This document shows positions 4,891 through 27,724 of a stretch of 47,010 nt of DNA, piece by piece. The stretch's first letter is position 1. Every line of letters begins with the position of its first letter. A program made the translations under genes and the position numbers. Under the pieces are notes generated by a model. It saw only the letters and a list, made by a program, of their open reading frames with translations, ran no database searches and was not told the DNA's origin. This DNA comes from a virus: the IMG/VR virus record IMGVR_UViG_3300031885_000031, positions 1 to 47,010 of that record. One strand, given 5' to 3'.

Positions 4891-7800
4891 GTGGGTGAGA
4901 TCGCAGAGATTCTGGCGGCGACTGAACCGGGCAGGACACGCCCGCGCCGGTTCCCCGGCGAAGGCGGGTTGCTCAGTCAGACGTTGGCGGCAACAGGCCA
5001 GGGGGCGCTTCGGGCGGCGTTCCCGCAAGAGGCCATTCCTGCGCCGTCTACGGAGCCTCTCCCGCTGCCCGAAGCGTCGCAACTTGGCACAACCCTGCCC
5101 GAGCGCGCGGTCGGCACTGGTTTTGAACTCATGCACGGCTTCGAGTCGCGGGTTGTCGAACCTGTTGTTGAAGGGATCACCCGCCTTGCGGGAGCAAGTG
5201 AGGCGGCGCGATCATGGACAGAGGAGTTCGAGACGCGACGTAAGAAAAGGATCCAGGGCTTGCCTGATCTGCCGACTGTAACGAAGGTCTTGAATGAGAC
5301 CGGCGGGGTCGGCGGCATCTTACTGTCAGGTCCATTGATCTACCCGGTTGTCGGTCTTGCTGGGTTCGGAGCAGGGTACGACGACGCTGCGCAGTATACA
5401 CTTGATGAGAACGTTCGCTGGCAGGCGGGGCTCGCAAACGGAGGATGGGACGCGGCCACCGCATGGGCTCTTGGCGTCCTGAAACCGTTGAGTGGTTCTG
5501 CGAAGGCGGGTATGGCGAACGTCTTGAAGAACGCGGCCAACATCGGAAGCGAAGGAGTCAAGTGGGGTATCTTCGGCACTCTCCTGAAGACAGGGCAGAA
5601 CACCATCGCCCGTGCTCTATATGATAATAACAGGGGCTTTTTCGACAACGTTCTCGCCTCTGGCGCGGGCGGCATAATTGTCGGTCTTGTGTTTGGAGTC
5701 CTCCGGGCGCTTGCTCATCTTCCTCCGGGCGCGATTGGAAAACCCCTCAAGGTCCACGAAGCCAAGAGCGCTCAGGGCGAGTACGCGGCCCTCGCCCCGG
5801 AGCATCAACCGCGCGCGGGTGAGACCCGGCCCGACTTCGCGCGGCGCGTCCGGCAGGAGTACGGCGGCGAGTACCCCGACTGGTTTCGCCGGTACTTCAT
5901 CACGGCTGAACCGCCGGCAGAGGGCGCGGCGCTCTACGGCGGCCTTCCCGTTCCGAGCCTCAAGCAACTCAAGGCCGCGGCCAGCGAACTCGGGCTCCTG
6001 TTGCCCCAGGTCAAGCGCTTCGCCCAGGTGCTGGCCAAGGGCGCGATGAGCGTCGAGGAGGCCGCCCGGCAGACAGGCGTTCCCTTGCAGGCCGCAATGG
6101 TCCTCGCCCAGCGGTTCGGGCAGCCGGAGCAGAAGACCTGGAAGGAAACGCTGAAAGAGGGCGAGGCGGGGCTGGCAGAAGTTCCAATTACCCCTACGAC
6201 GGGGGTAGAAGGCCCGCCGGTTGCGCCAGGAGCGACGCCTGCCCCGGATGCGGGCCAAGTGCCAACGGAAGGCGTCGGCGGGGTTCCTGCCCCCGCGCCT
6301 GCACCGGCGCGGGGCGAGGGGCCCGGCCTGAAAACTACTGTCGGTCCCGTTTCGATGATAGCATACCACGGAACCACGCCAAAGGCACTGGCGGCTATTC
6401 AGAAGAAGGGGTTTGCTCCCAAGATTCTGAACGGTCAATACTTTGGTGAAGGTGTCTATCTGACGCTGGACATGGCCGAGGCAAAACGGTACGGCGATGC
6501 TGTAGGAACATTCAACGTCCAACTGAAACAACCATTTGTCCTCGATTTAGACAAGTACAGGGGTGTTGAGGACTGGTATCACGAGATCGAAGATCGCATT
6601 GCTGTTTCGCTGTTCGACGAATACGGTGATCCGGTAACTGTACACACACGTGATCCAGAAACCCTCGGCCCCCAAGGTCGCCTTGCGCCTGAAGCGACAG
6701 AAGCCGCCTCTGCCATTACCCAGTTCCTGCAATCCCTGGGATACGATGGAGTGTTGGTAAAACAAGCGGGCAAGACGGCAGAAATTGTCGTCTTTGATCC
6801 GGCCAGTCTTGGTCGGCTCGCCGCCCCCGCGCCTGCCCCGGCGCAGGGCGAGGGGCCGACGGCGAAGAAGTTGCAGAAGGGCGAGTCAGGCATTCTTGCG
6901 GAACTCCGCGAACGAGCAAAGCAACCAGCCGATTTGACCTTGCCGCTTGGTGGCGTGGTAAACCCAAAGGCTGCGGCATTTATCCGCAAGATGGTGTCTG
7001 CCGTGCCGGAGTTTGCCATCGATCCGACCTTCACCGTGAACGCAGAAGGCAAACTTACCTTCCATGACGGGTTCCACTACGCCATCGAACCCGACTTGCT
7101 TGGGGTGGGAACGCCCAGCCCAGGAACACGCATCAGGGTTGACCTCGCCGCTTTTGGCATAAAGACTGAAGCCGCCGCCAAACGAGTTGCAGCACAGGCA
7201 GAGGGCAAGTACCCCAAAGTGCGCGCGGCCACTGCGCCGACGCCGTACAAACAGGCCGAGTACGCCGATGAGCCGGCCTTGAACGAGGCCCTGTTCAAGT
7301 GGAAGCAAACGACCGGAGAACTTCCCGATACTTGGGCAATGCCTTTTGAGCAGTATGTGGCCGAGCGCCTTACACACCCGCCTCTCCAGAAGACGGCCGC
7401 TTGGGGCCGAAGAGGCGTAGAGGTCATGTCCGCAGAAGAAGCAACCAAGGTTTACAGAGAGGAACACCGCGATGCCGTAGTACATGCCATCCAGAGAGGC
7501 AAGGTTCCGCCGGTTGAAAACCTGACTCCATACGTAAATGATAAGTGGGCAGGTTCGACCATTCGCAAAGCGATGGAAGCACGCGGCGCCGGCCCGGAAG
7601 TCAAGTCGTCCATCCCCGAAATCGCCGCTGCCCAGGAAGCGGACCTGGCCCGAGCGCGCGCGAACGTGCGACGGCCCGCGAGTGAGGGCGGGTACGGGCA
7701 ACCGCCTGCCAAGCAGCTTCAGCGTGCCGCCCCGCCAGCCGCCAAGAAGATCGAGAAGGCGGAAGCGCCGCCGGTCGCCGCCGGTCAACTACCCCCGCCA

Positions 7801-10800
7801 CCGAAGCCGCCCGCGCCGCCCGCCGCTGCGCCCGAACCGGAACCGGAACCGGAGGAACGGGTTGCCAAGGGCGCGGAGTTGGAAGCCGTTGTCCGTAAAG
7901 GTCAAGTCCAGGGCCGGGCGGAAGCCTTCGATGCCTTGACGAAACAGGCCAAGGCGGAAGTCAAGGGGGCTGTGGGCGCGGCCAAGGCTGAAGCCAAGAC
8001 CGAGGCCGAACAAGCGGCCATAGACGCTGAGCGCGAAAAGACTGGCGCGGTGTGGGACGTGCAACTCAAGGAGCGTCTGCGGGCCGAAGCGCAGGAAGAA
8101 GCGACGGCCACGAAGTTGTCTCAGGCACGGATGGCGCGACGTGCGGCCGTGGCCGAAGGCAGAGCCAACATCGCCAGTCTGTCGCTGCGGCTGAAGGCCA
8201 AACGTCAGACCGAGGACGAGATCCGAAGCGCGCTCGTCAAGGTCATCAAGCGGATGCCGAAGGAGATCAGGGGCAAACTCATCGCCAGAGTCAGAACCGC
8301 CATCACGGAAAACAAACTGGCGGATGCTCTGCAACTGGCGTGGAAGTACCTGACGGAGAATCATCAACGGGCGCTCATCAATGCCTCGAAGGCCGTCGCC
8401 ATGAAGATTCACAAGGCGACGTTGGAGTTTGACCCCAAAGACCCGACCGACCAAGCGTTGACGAGTGAGGCCGAGCGGGTCTTGGCGGCGCTCAAACGCG
8501 ACCTGATGAAACTGCAACCCGGAGAAACGCCGGAGGATGCGGTTGCGCGGCTCCTCAAGATCAAGGAGTTCCTGGTTGAAGGCTGGCACATGCACCGGGA
8601 CAAGACCGTGCTCTACACGCTTCAGGGCATGGCCGACGCGGAGGACGCGGCCCGGTCGGTACTCAAAGACCTTGAGACCTGGAACCCGCCGGCGGGCGTT
8701 GAACCGAAAGGCCCGATGCCCGGAACCCCGCACAGGTCCGTGGCCAACCGGGCATTGGACCTCAACAGTTACCCCGACACGGTTATCGAGGGCGACTTGG
8801 GACCGGAAGATGGGGTCCTTGAAACGATGCTCGTCAAGAACGTCGGGGTGGATGTCGTGCATCACCACTTCGCCGACTGGTACGCGGTCTATGACCCGAT
8901 GAACGATGCCGCCAAGGTGGCAACGGGCGGTATCCTTGGCAGCGAGAAAGACATCGCGTGGAAGTCCGACCCGTTGACGTTCGAGATCGGCGGGCAGAAA
9001 GTTACGGCAGAGCGCCGCTTCTGGCTCACCGTCTATGCGGTCTCGAGGGACGAGGACGCGATGGGGAAGTGGTTGGCGAGAACGGAAAGCGACCAGCCTG
9101 AACCATCGACCGCTGTATGGTCTATCCGGCGCGGCAAGGTGGCCTTCTCTTTCAACAATGCCGCCGAAGCCTACGAGTTGGCCGATGCGTTCGCCGCCGC
9201 CGACCCGAAGGGTGCCGCCTACGTCGATGCCTGTCTCGCCGCTCTCAACGCGCCGGGTAGGTACGAGAAGACTGATGCCACTCACGTCCAACTTTTCGGC
9301 ACACACATCGAGAAGGTTCCGGGCACGCGGATGCCGACTCAGTACAACGTGGCGGTGGAGAAGCAACGAGCCGTGCCCGACTTCTCGACAGCCTCGCCGA
9401 CGAACATCGTGAGGCACCTGGGCCATCATACCGCACGGTTGCCAGGCGGGCGCGGGGTCAGCATGGTCTTTGCCGACTTCGACAACACGATCATCCGTGA
9501 GGCGTGGGAAGATGCCGCGTTCAACAACTACGGGCCGACCCTCCGGGACGGCTGGATACTGATGCAGCAGATGGTGCCACATGGCGAAAAGCCGATCACC
9601 CTTCAGGCGTTTCTCGGTGAGCGGGTCGGTCGGGAAGTGCCGCAGATGCTCGACAGGCATCTGCGATACGTCGCCGGAGATGTCGGCCTCTCGTTTCAGA
9701 CAAGGTTGGAGGAGGCCGAGATCGATCCGTTCTTCCGCCGGGCACTTCACAACGCGATGGGCGCGGCGGTCGGCGGGTTCAAGTGGACGCCGATGGCGAA
9801 TCAGATACCGGCCGTCATCTTGCCGATGGCCGACACGAAACCTATGCACGCCGAGGACTTGGCGGGAGCCCTCGCGGAACTGCCCTCGAAATGGAAATGG
9901 GCGTGGGACATACTCCGGCGGGTCCGGTCCGACATCCGCTTCAGGGCGGAACAGTCCGACCCGCAACAATACCTCTCCTACGCGGAAGCGGCCCCGCGAG
10001 GACATGGGGCGAATCGTTGGTGGAGGCGGATCAAGAAGGCCGTCGGCTGGTCTGGCCGGGGCATGATCCGCGTGGACCAGTCGAACCGCATCGTCCATTT
10101 CCTGGCTGCGATCCGGCAGTTGATGCGCGAAAACAAGTTGACGGGGGAGGCACTTTACCAACGTGCCGGCGACATGGCCGCGAGGTGGATGTACCGGGTG
10201 GATGCACCTGTGACGAGCGCGGCCTACAACACCCCGGTCGGCAGGGCCGGGAAGTTCAGTACGGCGGTTGCGGCGGTGACGGCCTTTATGAAGGGCCGAC
10301 TCGCAAACTTCCAGGTCATGCTCCGGGCCATCAACGAGTACCGGCGGGACAAAGACCTGAGCAAGTTGCTCTACAAACTCACCATCGGGGCAATCGTGGC
10401 GGCGGGGTTCACGGCGGTCGGCATAGGTGGGGCGTATCTGTCCGGCAGGAAGGTGGGCGAAGGGCGCGGCGGCGTTGCGGGCGACTTCGTAGAGAACGCC
10501 CTGGGCAACACCTACGGGGCCACGGAAGCCATCCGCCTGATCCGGTCGAAGTCGGCCTACGGGGTCCAGGTGTTCTCAAGCCCGCCCGTCGCGGCGGCGG
10601 AACGGGTCGGCCAGGGTCTCGTCGGGTTGAGGACGGCCATCGAGAAGTCGAGCGGTGACAAGGCGTTCTCGGCCAGCCTAAAACTCCTGCGGGGGTCCGC
10701 CAGTCTGGCAGGGATACCGACCGATCAGGCGTTCAACCTCGTGCGGTTCATGCAGTCTATGCGCGTGGGACCGGGGCGGTTGCAGCCGATGAAGAAGAAG

Positions 10801-10935
10801 GGGGCGCGAAAGCCCAAGGCCCGGACGTATGCGGAGGCGCGGCGGGAGTTGTTCCAGAAGTTCAAGGGCCGTCCGGCTCGGGACTGGTGGGCGGCGGCAC
10901 GAAAACTCAGAGCCGAATGGGCAGAGAAAGGGTAA
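4891..10935 (+). CDS. Giant polyvalent-type virion protein with ADP-ribosyltransferase-like domain (2014 aa)
   Basis: This is the longest gene in the window. In order it shows: an N-terminal region with hydrophobic segments near residues 145-165 and 255-275; Pro/Ala linkers; an ADP-ribosyltransferase-like domain at about 489-640 with Y492-H493-G494-T495, G521-V522-Y523 and E631 in a V-V-F-D-P context, an H-Y-E-type triad; a region of unknown fold; a Pro-rich linker near 975-990; a long Ala/Glu/Lys helical or coiled-coil stretch (about 1000-1160); more unknown domains; and a membrane-like segment near 1828-1850. Giant mosaics of this kind are known as polyvalent proteins in phages and conjugative elements and are thought to be delivered with DNA. 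The domain is bracketed by two 35-bp near-identical linkers. GTG with GGAG 12 bases upstream is the likely start. Delivery and target are inferred. Confidence 0.85.
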   Translation: MGEIAEILAATEPGRTRPRRFPGEGGLLSQTLAATGQGALRAAFPQEAIPAPSTEPLPLPEASQLGTTLPERAVGTGFELMHGFESRVVEPVVEGITRLAGASEAARSWTEEFETRRKKRIQGLPDLPTVTKVLNETGGVGGILLSGPLIYPVVGLAGFGAGYDDAAQYTLDENVRWQAGLANGGWDAATAWALGVLKPLSGSAKAGMANVLKNAANIGSEGVKWGIFGTLLKTGQNTIARALYDNNRGFFDNVLASGAGGIIVGLVFGVLRALAHLPPGAIGKPLKVHEAKSAQGEYAALAPEHQPRAGETRPDFARRVRQEYGGEYPDWFRRYFITAEPPAEGAALYGGLPVPSLKQLKAAASELGLLLPQVKRFAQVLAKGAMSVEEAARQTGVPLQAAMVLAQRFGQPEQKTWKETLKEGEAGLAEVPITPTTGVEGPPVAPGATPAPDAGQVPTEGVGGVPAPAPAPARGEGPGLKTTVGPVSMIAYHGTTPKALAAIQKKGFAPKILNGQYFGEGVYLTLDMAEAKRYGDAVGTFNVQLKQPFVLDLDKYRGVEDWYHEIEDRIAVSLFDEYGDPVTVHTRDPETLGPQGRLAPEATEAASAITQFLQSLGYDGVLVKQAGKTAEIVVFDPASLGRLAAPAPAPAQGEGPTAKKLQKGESGILAELRERAKQPADLTLPLGGVVNPKAAAFIRKMVSAVPEFAIDPTFTVNAEGKLTFHDGFHYAIEPDLLGVGTPSPGTRIRVDLAAFGIKTEAAAKRVAAQAEGKYPKVRAATAPTPYKQAEYADEPALNEALFKWKQTTGELPDTWAMPFEQYVAERLTHPPLQKTAAWGRRGVEVMSAEEATKVYREEHRDAVVHAIQRGKVPPVENLTPYVNDKWAGSTIRKAMEARGAGPEVKSSIPEIAAAQEADLARARANVRRPASEGGYGQPPAKQLQRAAPPAAKKIEKAEAPPVAAGQLPPPPKPPAPPAAAPEPEPEPEERVAKGAELEAVVRKGQVQGRAEAFDALTKQAKAEVKGAVGAAKAEAKTEAEQAAIDAEREKTGAVWDVQLKERLRAEAQEEATATKLSQARMARRAAVAEGRANIASLSLRLKAKRQTEDEIRSALVKVIKRMPKEIRGKLIARVRTAITENKLADALQLAWKYLTENHQRALINASKAVAMKIHKATLEFDPKDPTDQALTSEAERVLAALKRDLMKLQPGETPEDAVARLLKIKEFLVEGWHMHRDKTVLYTLQGMADAEDAARSVLKDLETWNPPAGVEPKGPMPGTPHRSVANRALDLNSYPDTVIEGDLGPEDGVLETMLVKNVGVDVVHHHFADWYAVYDPMNDAAKVATGGILGSEKDIAWKSDPLTFEIGGQKVTAERRFWLTVYAVSRDEDAMGKWLARTESDQPEPSTAVWSIRRGKVAFSFNNAAEAYELADAFAAADPKGAAYVDACLAALNAPGRYEKTDATHVQLFGTHIEKVPGTRMPTQYNVAVEKQRAVPDFSTASPTNIVRHLGHHTARLPGGRGVSMVFADFDNTIIREAWEDAAFNNYGPTLRDGWILMQQMVPHGEKPITLQAFLGERVGREVPQMLDRHLRYVAGDVGLSFQTRLEEAEIDPFFRRALHNAMGAAVGGFKWTPMANQIPAVILPMADTKPMHAEDLAGALAELPSKWKWAWDILRRVRSDIRFRAEQSDPQQYLSYAEAAPRGHGANRWWRRIKKAVGWSGRGMIRVDQSNRIVHFLAAIRQLMRENKLTGEALYQRAGDMAARWMYRVDAPVTSAAYNTPVGRAGKFSTAVAAVTAFMKGRLANFQVMLRAINEYRRDKDLSKLLYKLTIGAIVAAGFTAVGIGGAYLSGRKVGEGRGGVAGDFVENALGNTYGATEAIRLIRSKSAYGVQVFSSPPVAAAERVGQGLVGLRTAIEKSSGDKAFSASLKLLRGSASLAGIPTDQAFNLVRFMQSMRVGPGRLQPMKKKGARKPKARTYAEARRELFQKFKGRPARDWWAAARKLRAEWAEKG
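6289..6323 (+). repeat. Left copy of a 35-bp linker repeat bracketing the ART-like domain
   Basis: It encodes a Pro-Ala linker ending in R-G-E-G-P. It matches 6823-6857 at 33 of 35 bases and is in the same reading frame, so recombination between the copies would delete or swap the intervening domain without a frameshift. Confidence 0.9.
6823..6857 (+). repeat. Right copy of the 35-bp linker repeat
   Basis: It encodes the Pro-Ala linker ending in Q-G-E-G-P just after the E-I-V-V-F-D-P strand of the ART-like domain. It differs from the left copy only at its 15th and 23rd bases. Confidence 0.9.
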
Positions 10936-23554: not shown

Positions 23555-24610
23555 ATGGCCTACTACAACGAGATCTCTGGCTTTTGCTGCCGGGTGCTGA
23601 GAGCGAGAATCGTCGATGGAAGATTGCCAGCCGGGACCGTTGACGAGCGCGACGTGCGGGAAGTCCGGCCCGCCGACATCCCCGCCGGCCAGGTCCACCT
23701 GTTCGCCGGTATCGGCGGATTCGGCCTCGCTGCCCGCCTCGCCAGGTTGCCCGACGACTTCGACATCTGGACGGCGGGATTCCCCTGCCAGGACATCAGC
23801 AGCGCCGGACGCGGCGCGGGATTGCACGGCGCCCGGAGCGGTCTGTTCTTTGAGATTGTGCGGCTCCTGCATGGGGTCCGACGACGACCGCTTTTTCTGC
23901 TCCTGGAGAATGTCTCTGCTCTGCGAACTCGCGGGTATGACCGGGTACGCGCTGAACTGGAAGAAGCAGGCTACGCCGTCCGGGCAGGAGTGGTGGGTGC
24001 TTGGGCGGTCGGAGCGCCGCACAGGCGGAACAGGGTGTGGATTGTGGCCCACCGCCAAGAGCGCGACGGGGGATTACCAGTACAGTCGGGGGAATCACAA
24101 CAAGCCTGTCCTGAACCTGAGCGGTGCTGTGAAGGACTGGCAGACGCCGAACGCGATGGCGGGCGGGAACAAGAGCCGGGGCGGGAAACGGATAGGCGAG
24201 TTGCTGCTGGCGGGGCAGGTGAAGGCGTGGCCGACGCCGAGAGCCGAGGACTCGGAGCAGACGGGGGCGCACGAGACACCGGACACGCTGACGAGCGCGG
24301 CGCGGACATGGCCGACGCCGAGGGCCAGCGAGAACGAGAACCGGACAACGCACCATGCACCGAGCCACGGAGTGACACACGGCAAGACGCTGGCGGGCGA
24401 GGTTGGCCTTCACGCCCCGGAGAGCCGCAGCATGAGTGGGAAGCGCCACGGCTGCTTGAACTCCCGATGGGTGGCCTCGCTGATGGGCTACCCGTCCGAC
24501 TGGTGCGCGCTCAAAACAGAGACGCCCTCAAAGCCTATGGCAACAGTATCGTCCCGCAGGTCGCGGCGGCGGTGATGAGGGCGATGATCGACGCGGGCGG
24601 GCGGGCGTGA
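23555..24610 (+). CDS. dcm: DNA (cytosine-5) methyltransferase (351 aa)
   Basis: Classical motifs appear in order: I, L-F-A-G-I-G-G-F-G (49-57), for S-adenosylmethionine; IV, F-P-C78-Q with the catalytic Cys; VI, E-N-V (118-120); VIII, R-R-N-R (157-160); and X, Y-G-N-S-I-V-P-Q-V-A (328-337). It would methylate the C5 position of cytosine in a short DNA site. The segment between motifs VIII and X, where target recognition lies, is unusually Arg/Glu/Gly/Asp-rich with repeated A-D-A-E. This same stretch carries a second open frame shifted by +1 whose product resembles another phage protein family (see 23616-24575). No restriction partner was seen, so protection from host restriction is likely. 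The ribosome site is weak. Confidence 0.87.
   Translation: MAYYNEISGFCCRVLRARIVDGRLPAGTVDERDVREVRPADIPAGQVHLFAGIGGFGLAARLARLPDDFDIWTAGFPCQDISSAGRGAGLHGARSGLFFEIVRLLHGVRRRPLFLLLENVSALRTRGYDRVRAELEEAGYAVRAGVVGAWAVGAPHRRNRVWIVAHRQERDGGLPVQSGESQQACPEPERCCEGLADAERDGGREQEPGRETDRRVAAGGAGEGVADAESRGLGADGGARDTGHADERGADMADAEGQREREPDNAPCTEPRSDTRQDAGGRGWPSRPGEPQHEWEAPRLLELPMGGLADGLPVRLVRAQNRDALKAYGNSIVPQVAAAVMRAMIDAGGRA
23616..24575 (+). other. +1-frame open reading frame overlapping the cytosine methyltransferase (319 codons)
   Basis: This frame stays open for 960 bases inside the methyltransferase gene. From about 23910 on its composition is that of a normal protein. It contains W-P-T-A (24045), W-Q-T-P (24138), two W-P-T-P-R-A motifs (24228 and 24309) and L-M-G-Y-P-S-D-W (24480-24503). 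Repeated W-P-T-P-x-A and a late L-M-G-[FY]-P-x-x-W are, from memory, marks of a phage family usually annotated as methyltransferase-associated. The first 100 codons look like shadow sequence (Ser/Pro/Ala-rich). It may be a true overlapping gene, the product of a +1 frameshift (a CTTTTTC tract lies at 23891-23897), or a by-product of codon bias. Confidence 0.35.
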
Positions 24611-24620
24611 GGAGAGAGGC

Positions 24621-24860
24621 ATGGCCAAGTACATAAGGTTTGAGAAAGTTGGCAGTTGGTCTGGCAAACCTATATATGACATTATCAACAAGGCGCACGG
24701 GGAAGTCCTCGGCTTCATCAAGTGGTATCCCCAATGGCGAGGATACGTCTGTGTGTTCTCTGCCGATACCATCTGGTCGATGGACTGTTTGGCCGACGTA
24801 CAGCGGTTTATGGCGACGCTCAAGCCGAGCGCCGCGCCAGGGAGGGAGCCGGGCTGTTGA
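24621..24860 (+). CDS. Small phage protein with I-K-W-Y-x-x-W-R-x-Y motif (79 aa)
   Basis: The pattern K-P-I-Y-D-I ... L-G-F-I-K-W-Y-P-Q-W-R-G-Y-V-C-V-F and a late C-L-A-D-V-Q-R-F match a small beta-rich protein widespread in phages and bacteria. Its role is unknown. GGAGAG precedes ATG. Its end overlaps the TTG start of the next gene. Confidence 0.75.
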   Translation: MAKYIRFEKVGSWSGKPIYDIINKAHGEVLGFIKWYPQWRGYVCVFSADTIWSMDCLADVQRFMATLKPSAAPGREPGC

Positions 24861-25693
24861 CTGAGGCTTGCGACATCTTCGGCGACGGCCGGGCGGTGAT
24901 CTACTGCGGCAACTGCCTGGAGATTCTGCCGCAGTTGCCGGCGGGGAGCGTGGACGCCGTGGTGACGGATCCGCCGTATGGGCACAACAACAACAACGGC
25001 GACCTAATCCATCGATGGGAAGCCGCCCTGGGGCGCGGGCCGCACGGGGAAGCCAGGGCGATTGCCAACGATGGCGTGGAGGCAAATGAGTTGTTCAAGG
25101 CCGTGCTACCCGAAATCTCCCGCGTCCTCGGCCCCGGCTGCTGCTGCTGCTGCTGCTGCGGCGGCGGCGGCCCCGACCCGCAGTTCGCCCGATGGTCTCT
25201 CTGGCTCGACGAAGTTCTTGAGTTCAAGCAAATGGTGGTATGGGACAAGGGGCCGATGGGCATGGGCTGGCACTACCGGCGCTCCTATGAAACGGTGCTT
25301 GTCGCGCAGAAGCGCGGTGCGGCGTGCCGATGGTTCGATGAAACCGACCGCGTCGAGAACATCATCCGACCGGGCCAGTACGGAATCCGCAAGATCATCC
25401 CGTCTGCAAACGAACATCCGACACTGAAGCCTGTTGAACTGGCGGCACACTTCATTCACCTGCACACGCAAGCCGACCATCTTGTCTGCGACCCCTTCAT
25501 GGGCAGCGGCACGACGGGCCTTGCCGCCGTCCAGTTGGGCCGCCGGTTCATCGGCATCGAGATCGACCCGCACTACTTCGCCATCGCCCACAAGCGGATA
25601 CTCGACGCCGCGCCGCTGTTCACCCAGGCGACGGCCCGCGACCGGGCAGGCGAGCGGGGGCTGTTCGGGGAGGAGGCGAACGGTGTACGCTAA
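24857..25693 (+). CDS. DPPY-type site-specific DNA methyltransferase 1 (278 aa)
   Basis: The catalytic motif T-D-P-P-Y (37-41) precedes the S-adenosylmethionine motif D-P-F-M-G-S-G-T-T-G (about residues 212-221), the order of beta-class N6-adenine or N4-cytosine methyltransferases. A run of seven Cys followed by four Gly (from residue 95, TGC repeats at 25139-25159) lies between them; similar Cys/Gly runs before P-x-P-x-F-A-x-W are known in this family from memory. The TTG start is supported by the paralogue at 27020, which opens with the same T-E and N-terminal pattern. Probable role: protection from restriction or a regulatory mark. The methylated site cannot be read from the sequence. Confidence 0.87.
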   Translation: MTEACDIFGDGRAVIYCGNCLEILPQLPAGSVDAVVTDPPYGHNNNNGDLIHRWEAALGRGPHGEARAIANDGVEANELFKAVLPEISRVLGPGCCCCCCCGGGGPDPQFARWSLWLDEVLEFKQMVVWDKGPMGMGWHYRRSYETVLVAQKRGAACRWFDETDRVENIIRPGQYGIRKIIPSANEHPTLKPVELAAHFIHLHTQADHLVCDPFMGSGTTGLAAVQLGRRFIGIEIDPHYFAIAHKRILDAAPLFTQATARDRAGERGLFGEEANGVR

Positions 25694-26691: not shown

Positions 26692-27023
26692 ACCCCGACA
26701 TTCCGAGTTTCGAGACGTGCAAGCGGCTGGCGGTGCTGTGGCCGCACGAAGATGCCCTGTGGTTCTACTCGCAGATGGGCAACTTGATGCAAGGTGCGCG
26801 TGGACCGGCGGGTTACACGATTTCCGCCCCCACCATCGGCGAGATGTTGGCGGAGATCAGGCGGTGCGGATGGAGATGGAACCTTGAGCGGAAACAATCC
26901 CAGGCCAAGGTTGTGGCCTCGATCCGAACGGGCAGGTACAAAGAGGTGTGGATGGCTGATAAAGAACCCGCCGATGCGCTGGCCCTGGTCCTGTGCGCGG
27001 CGATGGAGGAGGGGAAGCGGTGA
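26688..27023 (+). CDS. Paralogous early protein B (111 aa)
   Basis: It shares P-D-I-P-S-F-x-T-C-K-R-L, A-P-T-I-G-E-M-L-A-E-I-R-R and a closing A-D-A-L-A-L-V-L with the protein at 22586-22957; the middle differs. It directly precedes the second DPPY-type methyltransferase, with a four-base overlap, whereas the other copy lies five genes upstream of the first. The function is unknown; duplication together with the methyltransferase is possible. Confidence 0.72.
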   Translation: MNPDIPSFETCKRLAVLWPHEDALWFYSQMGNLMQGARGPAGYTISAPTIGEMLAEIRRCGWRWNLERKQSQAKVVASIRTGRYKEVWMADKEPADALALVLCAAMEEGKR

Positions 27024-27724
27024 CTGAGTGGGTAGACATCTTCAAGGACGGCCGGGCGCTTATCGCGTGCGGCGACTGCCTGGAGGTGATGAAGGAGTTG
27101 CCGGCGGGGAGCGTGGACGCCGTGGTGGCGGATATTCCTTATGGCGAAGTGAACCGACCCTCATCGGGCCTCCGAAATCTCGATAAAGGCATGGCCGATA
27201 CGGAAACCTTTGCGCTTGCCTTTGCCGTCGAACAATCGGCCCGGCTGGGCCGTTCTGTCTACCTGTGGTGTGGAACGGAACAGGTCAGCGAACTCCGGCA
27301 GCGGTTTGTTGCTCTGGGCATGACAACCCGACTTTGCATCTGGCACAAGAGCAACCCCAGCCCCATGAATGGAGAACATCTTTGGCTGTCGGCGCTCGAG
27401 GCGTGCGTCTTTGCTCGACATGATGGGGTCTACTTCGGACGGCATTGCCAATCACCTATCTGGCGCGGACCGTCAGAATCGAAACCACAACACCCAACCC
27501 AAAAGCCCTTGTGGCTCATGCGCGAACTCGTGGAAGCCAGTGTACCAGAGGATGGGACAACACTCGACTTTTGCATGGGCTCCGGCACGACGGGCGTTGC
27601 CGCCGTCCAGTTGGGACGCAGGTTCATCGGCATCGAGATTGACCCCGGCTACTTCAAGATCGCCCACAAGCGGATACTCGACGCCGCGCCGCTGTTCGTG
27701 CGGCCCCTGGAGTCAACTCCATGA
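27020..27724 (+). CDS. Methyltransferase 2 with D-I-P-Y catalytic motif (234 aa)
   Basis: It begins like methyltransferase 1 (T-E ... D-I-F-x-D-G-R-A ... C-L-E), and the last 45 residues around M-G-S-G-T-T-G-V-A-A-V-Q-L-G-R-R-F-I-G-I-E-I-D are nearly identical, while the middle is unrelated. The catalytic motif reads D-I-P-Y (38-41) in place of D-P-P-Y, and the binding motif begins F-C-M-G in place of F-M-G. The changed Pro may alter or reduce activity. H-P-T-Q-K-P before the binding motif is typical of this class. It overlaps both neighbouring genes by four bases. Confidence 0.82.
   Translation: MTEWVDIFKDGRALIACGDCLEVMKELPAGSVDAVVADIPYGEVNRPSSGLRNLDKGMADTETFALAFAVEQSARLGRSVYLWCGTEQVSELRQRFVALGMTTRLCIWHKSNPSPMNGEHLWLSALEACVFARHDGVYFGRHCQSPIWRGPSESKPQHPTQKPLWLMRELVEASVPEDGTTLDFCMGSGTTGVAAVQLGRRFIGIEIDPGYFKIAHKRILDAAPLFVRPLESTP

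What the first reader, a model, noticed from the sequence alone, without database searches (positions are those of the whole stretch)
23616..24575. Methyltransferase gene carries a second protein-like reading frame
The +1 frame is open for 960 bases and contains four W-[PQ]-T-[PA] motifs and L-M-G-Y-P-S-D-W, hallmarks from memory of another phage protein family. In the methyltransferase frame the same bases read V-A-D-A-E and A-D-G-L-P. Both frames look like conserved proteins over the same stretch, which could mean dual coding, a programmed +1 frameshift (CTTTTTC at 23891-23897), or long-standing misannotation of one frame.
Basis: partly seen in the sequence, partly recalled or inferred. Interest (0 to 1): 0.7.

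Follow-up and report, generated by a model that had tools for sequence, protein, structure and literature searches.

The report
Methyltransferase gene hides its partner subunit
One stretch of phage DNA is read in two frames to make the two parts of one DNA-methylating enzyme: the catalytic part in one frame and, most likely, the DNA-recognising part in the other, an arrangement reported for one bacterial enzyme but shared by hundreds of phages whose annotations mostly show only one of the two.

Summary
The window's C5-cytosine methyltransferase (23555-24610) contains an out-of-frame ORF (23616-24575) with four W[PQ]T[PA] repeats and LMGYPSDW. In 119 of 128 phage relatives the +1 frame has no stop between motifs VIII and X; the third frame is never open. 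Codon-shuffled controls predict 294 stops in +1; 16 are seen. There, substitutions fall mainly at third positions of +1 codons: the +1 protein is under purifying selection (omega 0.40), the methyltransferase frame nearly neutral (0.90). AlphaFold2 gives frame 0 a confident catalytic core, about 135 low-confidence residues, then a motif X helix.

The +1 protein carries motif IX (LNPxWVEWLMGxPxxW, aligning with M.HhaI LHPRECARVMGYPDSY). Motif IX is in +1 in 120 of 128 genes, in frame 0 in two, never in both. [quoted passage not shown] Internal ribosome-binding sites favour separate initiation; the proposed CTTTTTC slip site is not conserved. Not found described: the breadth, the recognition region's likely place in the nested frame, and actinophage frame switches.

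The parts
23555..24610 (+). Frame 0: large (alpha) subunit of a C5-cytosine methyltransferase, motifs I-VIII and X
   Evidence: PF00145 matches residues 64-188, profile positions 57-180 of 324; phrog_363; AF2 residues 1-170 pLDDT about 96 and a helix pair at the motif X end; Foldseek M.HhaI E=4.8e-10
23616..24575 (+). Frame +1: nested small (beta) subunit, TRD-like repeats plus motif IX; start codon uncertain (ATG 23616 is the longest candidate; the fully stop-free zone in relatives corresponds to about 23850 onward)
   Evidence: phrog_1008 E=4.3e-17; 98 relatives by blastp; stop depletion and substitution periodicity in relatives
23702..23722 (+). FAGIGGF, motif I (frame 0)
23777..23794 (+). 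GFPCQD, motif IV with catalytic Cys (frame 0)
   Evidence: C78 and Q79 invariant in the frame-0 alignment
23897..23917 (+). LLLENVS, motif VI (frame 0)
23952..23966 (+). LNWKK, start of the conserved +1 block LTWKxxxTPxG
24008..24040 (+). VGAPHRRNRVW, motif VIII (frame 0)
24045..24056 (+). WPTA, +1 repeat 1
24138..24149 (+). WQTP, +1 repeat 2
24228..24239 (+). WPTP, +1 repeat 3 (frame 0 reads VADAE)
24309..24320 (+). WPTP, +1 repeat 4 (frame 0 reads MADAE)
24074..24478 (+). Frame-0 residues 174-308: low-confidence, probably disordered linker between the catalytic core and motif X; evolves nearly neutrally in frame 0 in relatives
   Evidence: pLDDT about 40; omega(frame 0) 0.90 in relatives
24456..24503 (+). 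LNSRWVASLMGYPSDW, motif IX in the +1 frame
   Evidence: near-invariant LNP....WLMG.P..W in 109-113 relatives; in L138 the in-frame counterpart aligns with M.HhaI 270-318
24539..24559 (+). GNSIVPQ, motif X (frame 0)

Best explanation
The locus encodes both subunits of one split C5-cytosine DNA methyltransferase on the same DNA. Frame 0 makes the large subunit: AdoMet-binding and catalytic core (motifs I-VIII), then a flexible linker of about 130 residues, then the motif X helix. The +1 frame makes the small subunit: a short conserved block (LTWKxxxTPxG), one to six WPTPxAxD repeats in the place of the target-recognition domain, and motif IX (LNPxWVEWLMGxPxxW). The two chains are inferred to assemble into one enzyme, with the small subunit supplying DNA recognition and motif IX. 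The small subunit is probably started at internal ribosome-binding sites inside the large-subunit gene. Shown here: dual coding, selection on +1, motif partition, low-confidence frame-0 region. Inferred: assembly, the recognition role of the repeats, separate initiation. By analogy: M.EcoHK31I, a two-polypeptide C5 enzyme with the same motif partition.
For: Stops: +1 16 observed vs 294 expected; +2 961 vs 916; none in 124 genes from -50 to +60 codons around motif VIII. Periodicity: outside the overlap frame-0 position 3 takes about 57-72% of substitutions; between motifs VIII and X position 1 (= +1 position 3) leads, then position 3 leads again after motif X. Two-frame rates on 90 disjoint pairs: omega(+1) 0.40 (0.35-0.45), omega(frame 0) 0.90 (0.79-1.01). 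206 [WL]PTP motifs face 47 different frame-0 tetrapeptides varying at the +1 third positions (D/H/Y/N, A/T/S/P). Motif IX in +1 in 120 of 128, in frame 0 in 2, in both in 0. The two exceptions (L138, L149) have motif IX in frame 0; there PF00145 matches positions 2-322 and 1-323 of 324, against 57-180 in the window. M.HhaI alignment. Reverse search from +1 sequences: 159 of 160 loci have the methyltransferase core in the -1 frame, none as an in-frame fusion. AF2 of frame 0. Internal SD plus start in +1 at codons -130 to -121: 54 vs 11 expected, often AAAGGAGTATTGAAGATG. M.EcoHK31I: large polypeptide I-VIII and X, motif IX in the small one (PMC3404938).
Against: No expression, purification or methylation data for any of these +1 ORFs. 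AF2 of the +1 protein alone is poor (mean pLDDT 58.6) and finds no PDB match. The cited paper places the predicted TRD of M.EcoHK31I in the large subunit, opposite to the placement proposed here. The window's own start codon has only a weak Shine-Dalgarno. The window has no close relative for a rate test of its own: against L011 and L012 the overlap shows no clear frame preference at that divergence. Frame 0 also has a conserved stretch in the overlap (WPSRPGEPQHEWEAPR, 24404-24451).
Confidence: 0.85

Rival explanations
1. Programmed +1 ribosomal frameshifting joins the N-terminal catalytic part to the +1 C-terminal part, giving a second, fused methyltransferase.
For: In actinophages Samy and Eesa frame 0 stops soon after motif VIII and the +1 frame carries the repeats, motif IX and motif X, so a frameshift would give one complete chain.
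Against: The proposed CTTTTTC occurs in 2 of 124 relatives in that stretch. SD plus start codons are enriched inside the gene. Both frames are conserved from about 60 codons upstream of motif VIII, which a shift at one late site would not need. In proteobacterial-type members motif X stays in frame 0, so a shifted product lacks it.
Confidence: 0.12
2. The +1 ORF is an unrelated overprinted protein (for example anti-restriction or regulatory) that happens to sit in methyltransferase genes.
For: No Pfam family, no structural match.
Against: It contains motif IX, which the frame-0 protein lacks; motif IX is never in both frames. All 160 reverse-search loci also matched the methyltransferase core.
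Confidence: 0.06
3. No second protein is made: the +1 frame is open because of GC content and conserved frame-0 motifs such as VADA and ADGLP.
For: GC-rich window; for the window alone openness has P about 0.2.
Against: Synonymous-shuffle null, +2 control, members of GC about 0.5 that are open in +1, reversed codon periodicity, omega 0.40 vs 0.90, frame-0 tetrapeptides drifting while WPTP is kept.
Confidence: 0.01

Closest known systems
M.EcoHK31I (YGGCCR), two-polypeptide C5 methyltransferase
   Same: Large polypeptide with motifs I-VIII and X, motif IX only in the small polypeptide (PMC3404938, citing Lee, Kam and Shaw 1995). From memory, not verified: its small subunit is also encoded inside the large one in another frame.
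   Different: Studied as a bacterial two-polypeptide enzyme (R-M system, from memory). Its TRD was predicted in the large subunit; selection and AF2 results here put the recognition region in the nested frame.
M.AquI (CYCGRG), split C5 methyltransferase
   Same: Two polypeptides make one C5 enzyme (PMC3404938).
   Different: Split within the variable region, with motifs IX and X both in the small subunit; actinophage Samy and Eesa loci are nearer to this than the window is.
phrog_1008 and phrog_31772 (PHROGs v4, both 'DNA methyltransferase')
   Same: The +1 protein matches phrog_1008 and twelve relatives match both.
   Different: Named as methyltransferases, but the matching +1 proteins have no catalytic motif.
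ShiLan-type out-of-frame HNH in phage methylases (PMC11855218)
   Same: A second out-of-frame ORF inside a phage methylase gene.
   Different: That is an inserted homing element with patchy distribution; here the nested frame is an old, family-wide part of the enzyme.

Membership tests
C5-cytosine DNA methyltransferase (PF00145) | Core motifs I, IV, VI, VIII and X | tested here: met
C5-cytosine DNA methyltransferase (PF00145) | TRD and motif IX in the same chain (one-chain form) | tested here: not met
   Profile match stops at position 180 of 324; motif IX is in the +1 frame. So it is not a one-chain member
M.EcoHK31I-type split C5 methyltransferase | Large polypeptide with motifs I-VIII and X, lacking IX | tested here: met
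M.EcoHK31I-type split C5 methyltransferase | Small polypeptide carrying motif IX | tested here: met
   +1 LNSRWVASLMGYPSDW; bridge L138 aligned with M.HhaI 270-318
M.EcoHK31I-type split C5 methyltransferase | Small polypeptide encoded inside the large gene in another frame | tested here: met
   Met in this locus; that M.EcoHK31I shares it is from memory
M.EcoHK31I-type split C5 methyltransferase | Both polypeptides needed for methylation | not testable with these tools
   needs expression and assay
M.EcoHK31I-type split C5 methyltransferase | Sequence homology to M.EcoHK31I | not tested
   its sequence and the 1995 paper were not available
Programmed +1 frameshift gene | Conserved slippery site at the frame change | tested here: not met
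   CTTTTTC in 2 of 124 relatives in that stretch
ShiLan-type out-of-frame HNH insertion | HNH domain and patchy presence as an insert | tested here: not met
   No HNH family hit; +1 frame open in 119 of 128 genes

The most novel reading that the evidence does not exclude
The nested WPTP repeats (one to six copies) are exchangeable target-recognition modules. Because they sit in a frame where the catalytic subunit is only a nearly neutral flexible linker, phages can gain, lose or swap recognition modules without harming catalysis, and indels move modules between the nested and the fused state, as in actinophages WillSterrel, prophi91-4 and CheeseTouch.
Probability: 0.3. Interest if true: 0.8.

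Novelty: new variant of a known kind. Interest (0 to 1): 0.66.

Why it matters
It would make a curiosity known from one restriction-modification enzyme into a common phage gene design: two subunits of one enzyme on the same DNA, with the usually unannotated frame carrying most of the selection. It would explain why phage records show overlapping 'DNA methyltransferase' pairs or pick the wrong frame, it predicts that these enzymes are inactive when only the annotated frame is cloned, and it offers a large natural data set on long same-strand overlapping genes.

Tried and rejected
Programmed frameshift at CTTTTTC: not conserved. Chance openness from GC content: rejected by synonymous shuffles and the +2 control at family level, though not from the window alone. 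Out-of-frame homing endonuclease (PMC11855218): no HNH in the +1 frame here. Wrong-frame annotation only: rejected, since motif X and the catalytic core are in frame 0 and motif IX is in +1. Structure search of the +1 model: low confidence, no meaningful match. PDB search with the +1 profile: only chance hits. Literature searches for a described overlapping gene in this phage family found none, in an open-licence library only.

Full report
Observation. The window is a 47-kb tailed-phage record (portal, terminase and RecT-like hits). Frame 0 at 23555-24610 is a C5 methyltransferase and the +1 ORF 23616-24575 is open as described. Frame 0 matches phrog_363; the +1 frame matches a different PHROG, phrog_1008, also labelled DNA methyltransferase. 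In Escherichia phage K1ind2 and Xanthomonas phage PhiXhv-28 both overlapping ORFs are annotated; in Cronobacter phage JC01 only the +1 ORF; in epsilon15 only frame 0. All carry the same +1 motifs.

Is it more than chance? Relatives were gathered mainly by frame-0 searches, plus two loci from a +1 search and five annotated phage regions. Of 128 usable genes, 119 have no +1 stop between motif VIII and motif X; the +2 frame is open in none. With the protein fixed and codons redrawn from the same gene, 294 +1 stops are expected and 16 found; +2 agrees with expectation, 961 against 916. For the window alone the chance is about 0.2, so the case rests on the family. Caveat: the searches kept the best 80 loci per query, so the fraction applies to relatives of the queries, not to all C5 methyltransferases; a few very similar loci are counted separately.

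Which frame is selected? Neutral nucleotide alignments show frame-0 codon position 3 as the most variable position upstream and again after motif X. Between motifs VIII and X position 1 leads, which is position 3 of the +1 codons. On 90 disjoint pairs from 236 loci, omega is 0.40 for +1 and 0.90 for frame 0. Where +1 reads [WL]PTP, frame 0 reads [VLM]A[DHYN][ATSP], 47 variants in 206 instances, varying at the +1 third positions. The 60 codons before motif VIII are constrained in both frames.

What is it? The +1 protein ends with LNPxWVEWLMGxPxxW. In two relatives, L138 and L149, this motif sits in frame 0, followed by motif X; there PF00145 matches almost its whole length, and the segment aligns with M.HhaI LHPRECARVMGYPDSY...QFGNSVV (the segment alone scores weakly). 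So it is motif IX. Across 128 genes motif IX is in +1 in 120, in frame 0 in 2, in both in none. AF2 of the window's frame 0 gives residues 1-170 at pLDDT about 96, residues 174-308 about 40, and a confident helix pair at motif X; Foldseek finds M.HhaI and M.HaeIII. The recognition domain and motif IX are thus missing from frame 0, and motif IX is supplied by +1.

Reverse test. Searching with +1 alignments in viral contigs and in bacterial genomes gave 160 loci. In 159 the methyltransferase core lies in the -1 frame, in none in frame, and in 155 frame 0 stays open through the overlap. The 80 best bacterial loci are mostly Proteobacteria, with MAGs of other phyla; many may be prophages, which was not tested.

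Frame switching. In actinophages the same LPTP repeats occur in other arrangements. In Samy and Eesa frame 0 stops after motif VIII, and +1 carries repeats, motif IX and motif X. In WillSterrel and prophi91-4 the first repeats are in +1 and later ones, with motifs IX and X, in frame 0; in CheeseTouch the repeats are in +1 and motifs IX and X in frame 0. This suggests, as inference, that a one-chain enzyme and the nested form interconvert by indels.

How is the small subunit made? SD plus start codon pairs in +1 are enriched at codons -130 to -121 before the end of motif VIII, 54 against 11 expected, and near -70, 35 against 9.6, in the epsilon15-like group. A common form is AAAGGAGTATTGAAGATG inside VDERSIEDV. 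This favours internal initiation in that group. The window itself has only a weak SD before ATG 23616. The CTTTTTC heptamer is not conserved.

Known precedent. M.EcoHK31I is a two-polypeptide C5 enzyme with motifs I-VIII and X in the large chain and motif IX in the small one (PMC3404938). I recall that its small chain is also read from another frame inside the large gene; the 1995 paper is not held, so this is unverified. The window works like that enzyme and meets the motif features tested; homology to it was not testable. Different here: family-wide spread in phages, and evidence that the recognition region lies in the nested frame.

Verdict. Dual coding: near certain for the family and, by homology, for the window. 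Split methyltransferase: about 0.85. Internal initiation rather than frameshift: about 0.75.

Noticed in passing
L121 and L134, +1 frame between motif IX and motif X: Each carries a Cys/His-rich, HNH-like insert in the +1 frame inside the methyltransferase gene, reminiscent of ShiLan-type out-of-frame HNH insertions.
   Followed up: no
L335, L337, L341 (actinophages CheeseTouch, WillSterrel, prophi91-4): LPTP repeats or motif IX switch between the +1 frame and frame 0 part-way through the gene, as if indels moved modules between frames.
   Followed up: partly
window 24404-24451: Frame-0 WPSRPGEPQHEWEAPR is conserved in L007, L008 and L010 within the overlap, so a short stretch may be constrained in both frames.
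   Followed up: partly
window 25139-25175: A run of TGC then GGC triplets gives a Cys run then a Gly run inside the next methyltransferase gene (24722-25693, PF01555); a possible length-variable repeat.
   Followed up: no
window 24722-25693 and 26993-27724: Two further N6/N4-type DNA methyltransferases (PF01555) close downstream, so this phage carries at least three methyltransferase loci.
   Followed up: partly
window 4891-10935: A 2014-residue ORF with a weak ADP-ribosyltransferase (PARP / ART-PolyVal) match, suggesting a polyvalent protein; both scores are below the curated cut-offs.
   Followed up: no
L212, L228, L235, L296, L298: The methyltransferase frame has stops within the +1 match while the +1 frame is open; decayed or rearranged copies, not examined.
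   Followed up: no
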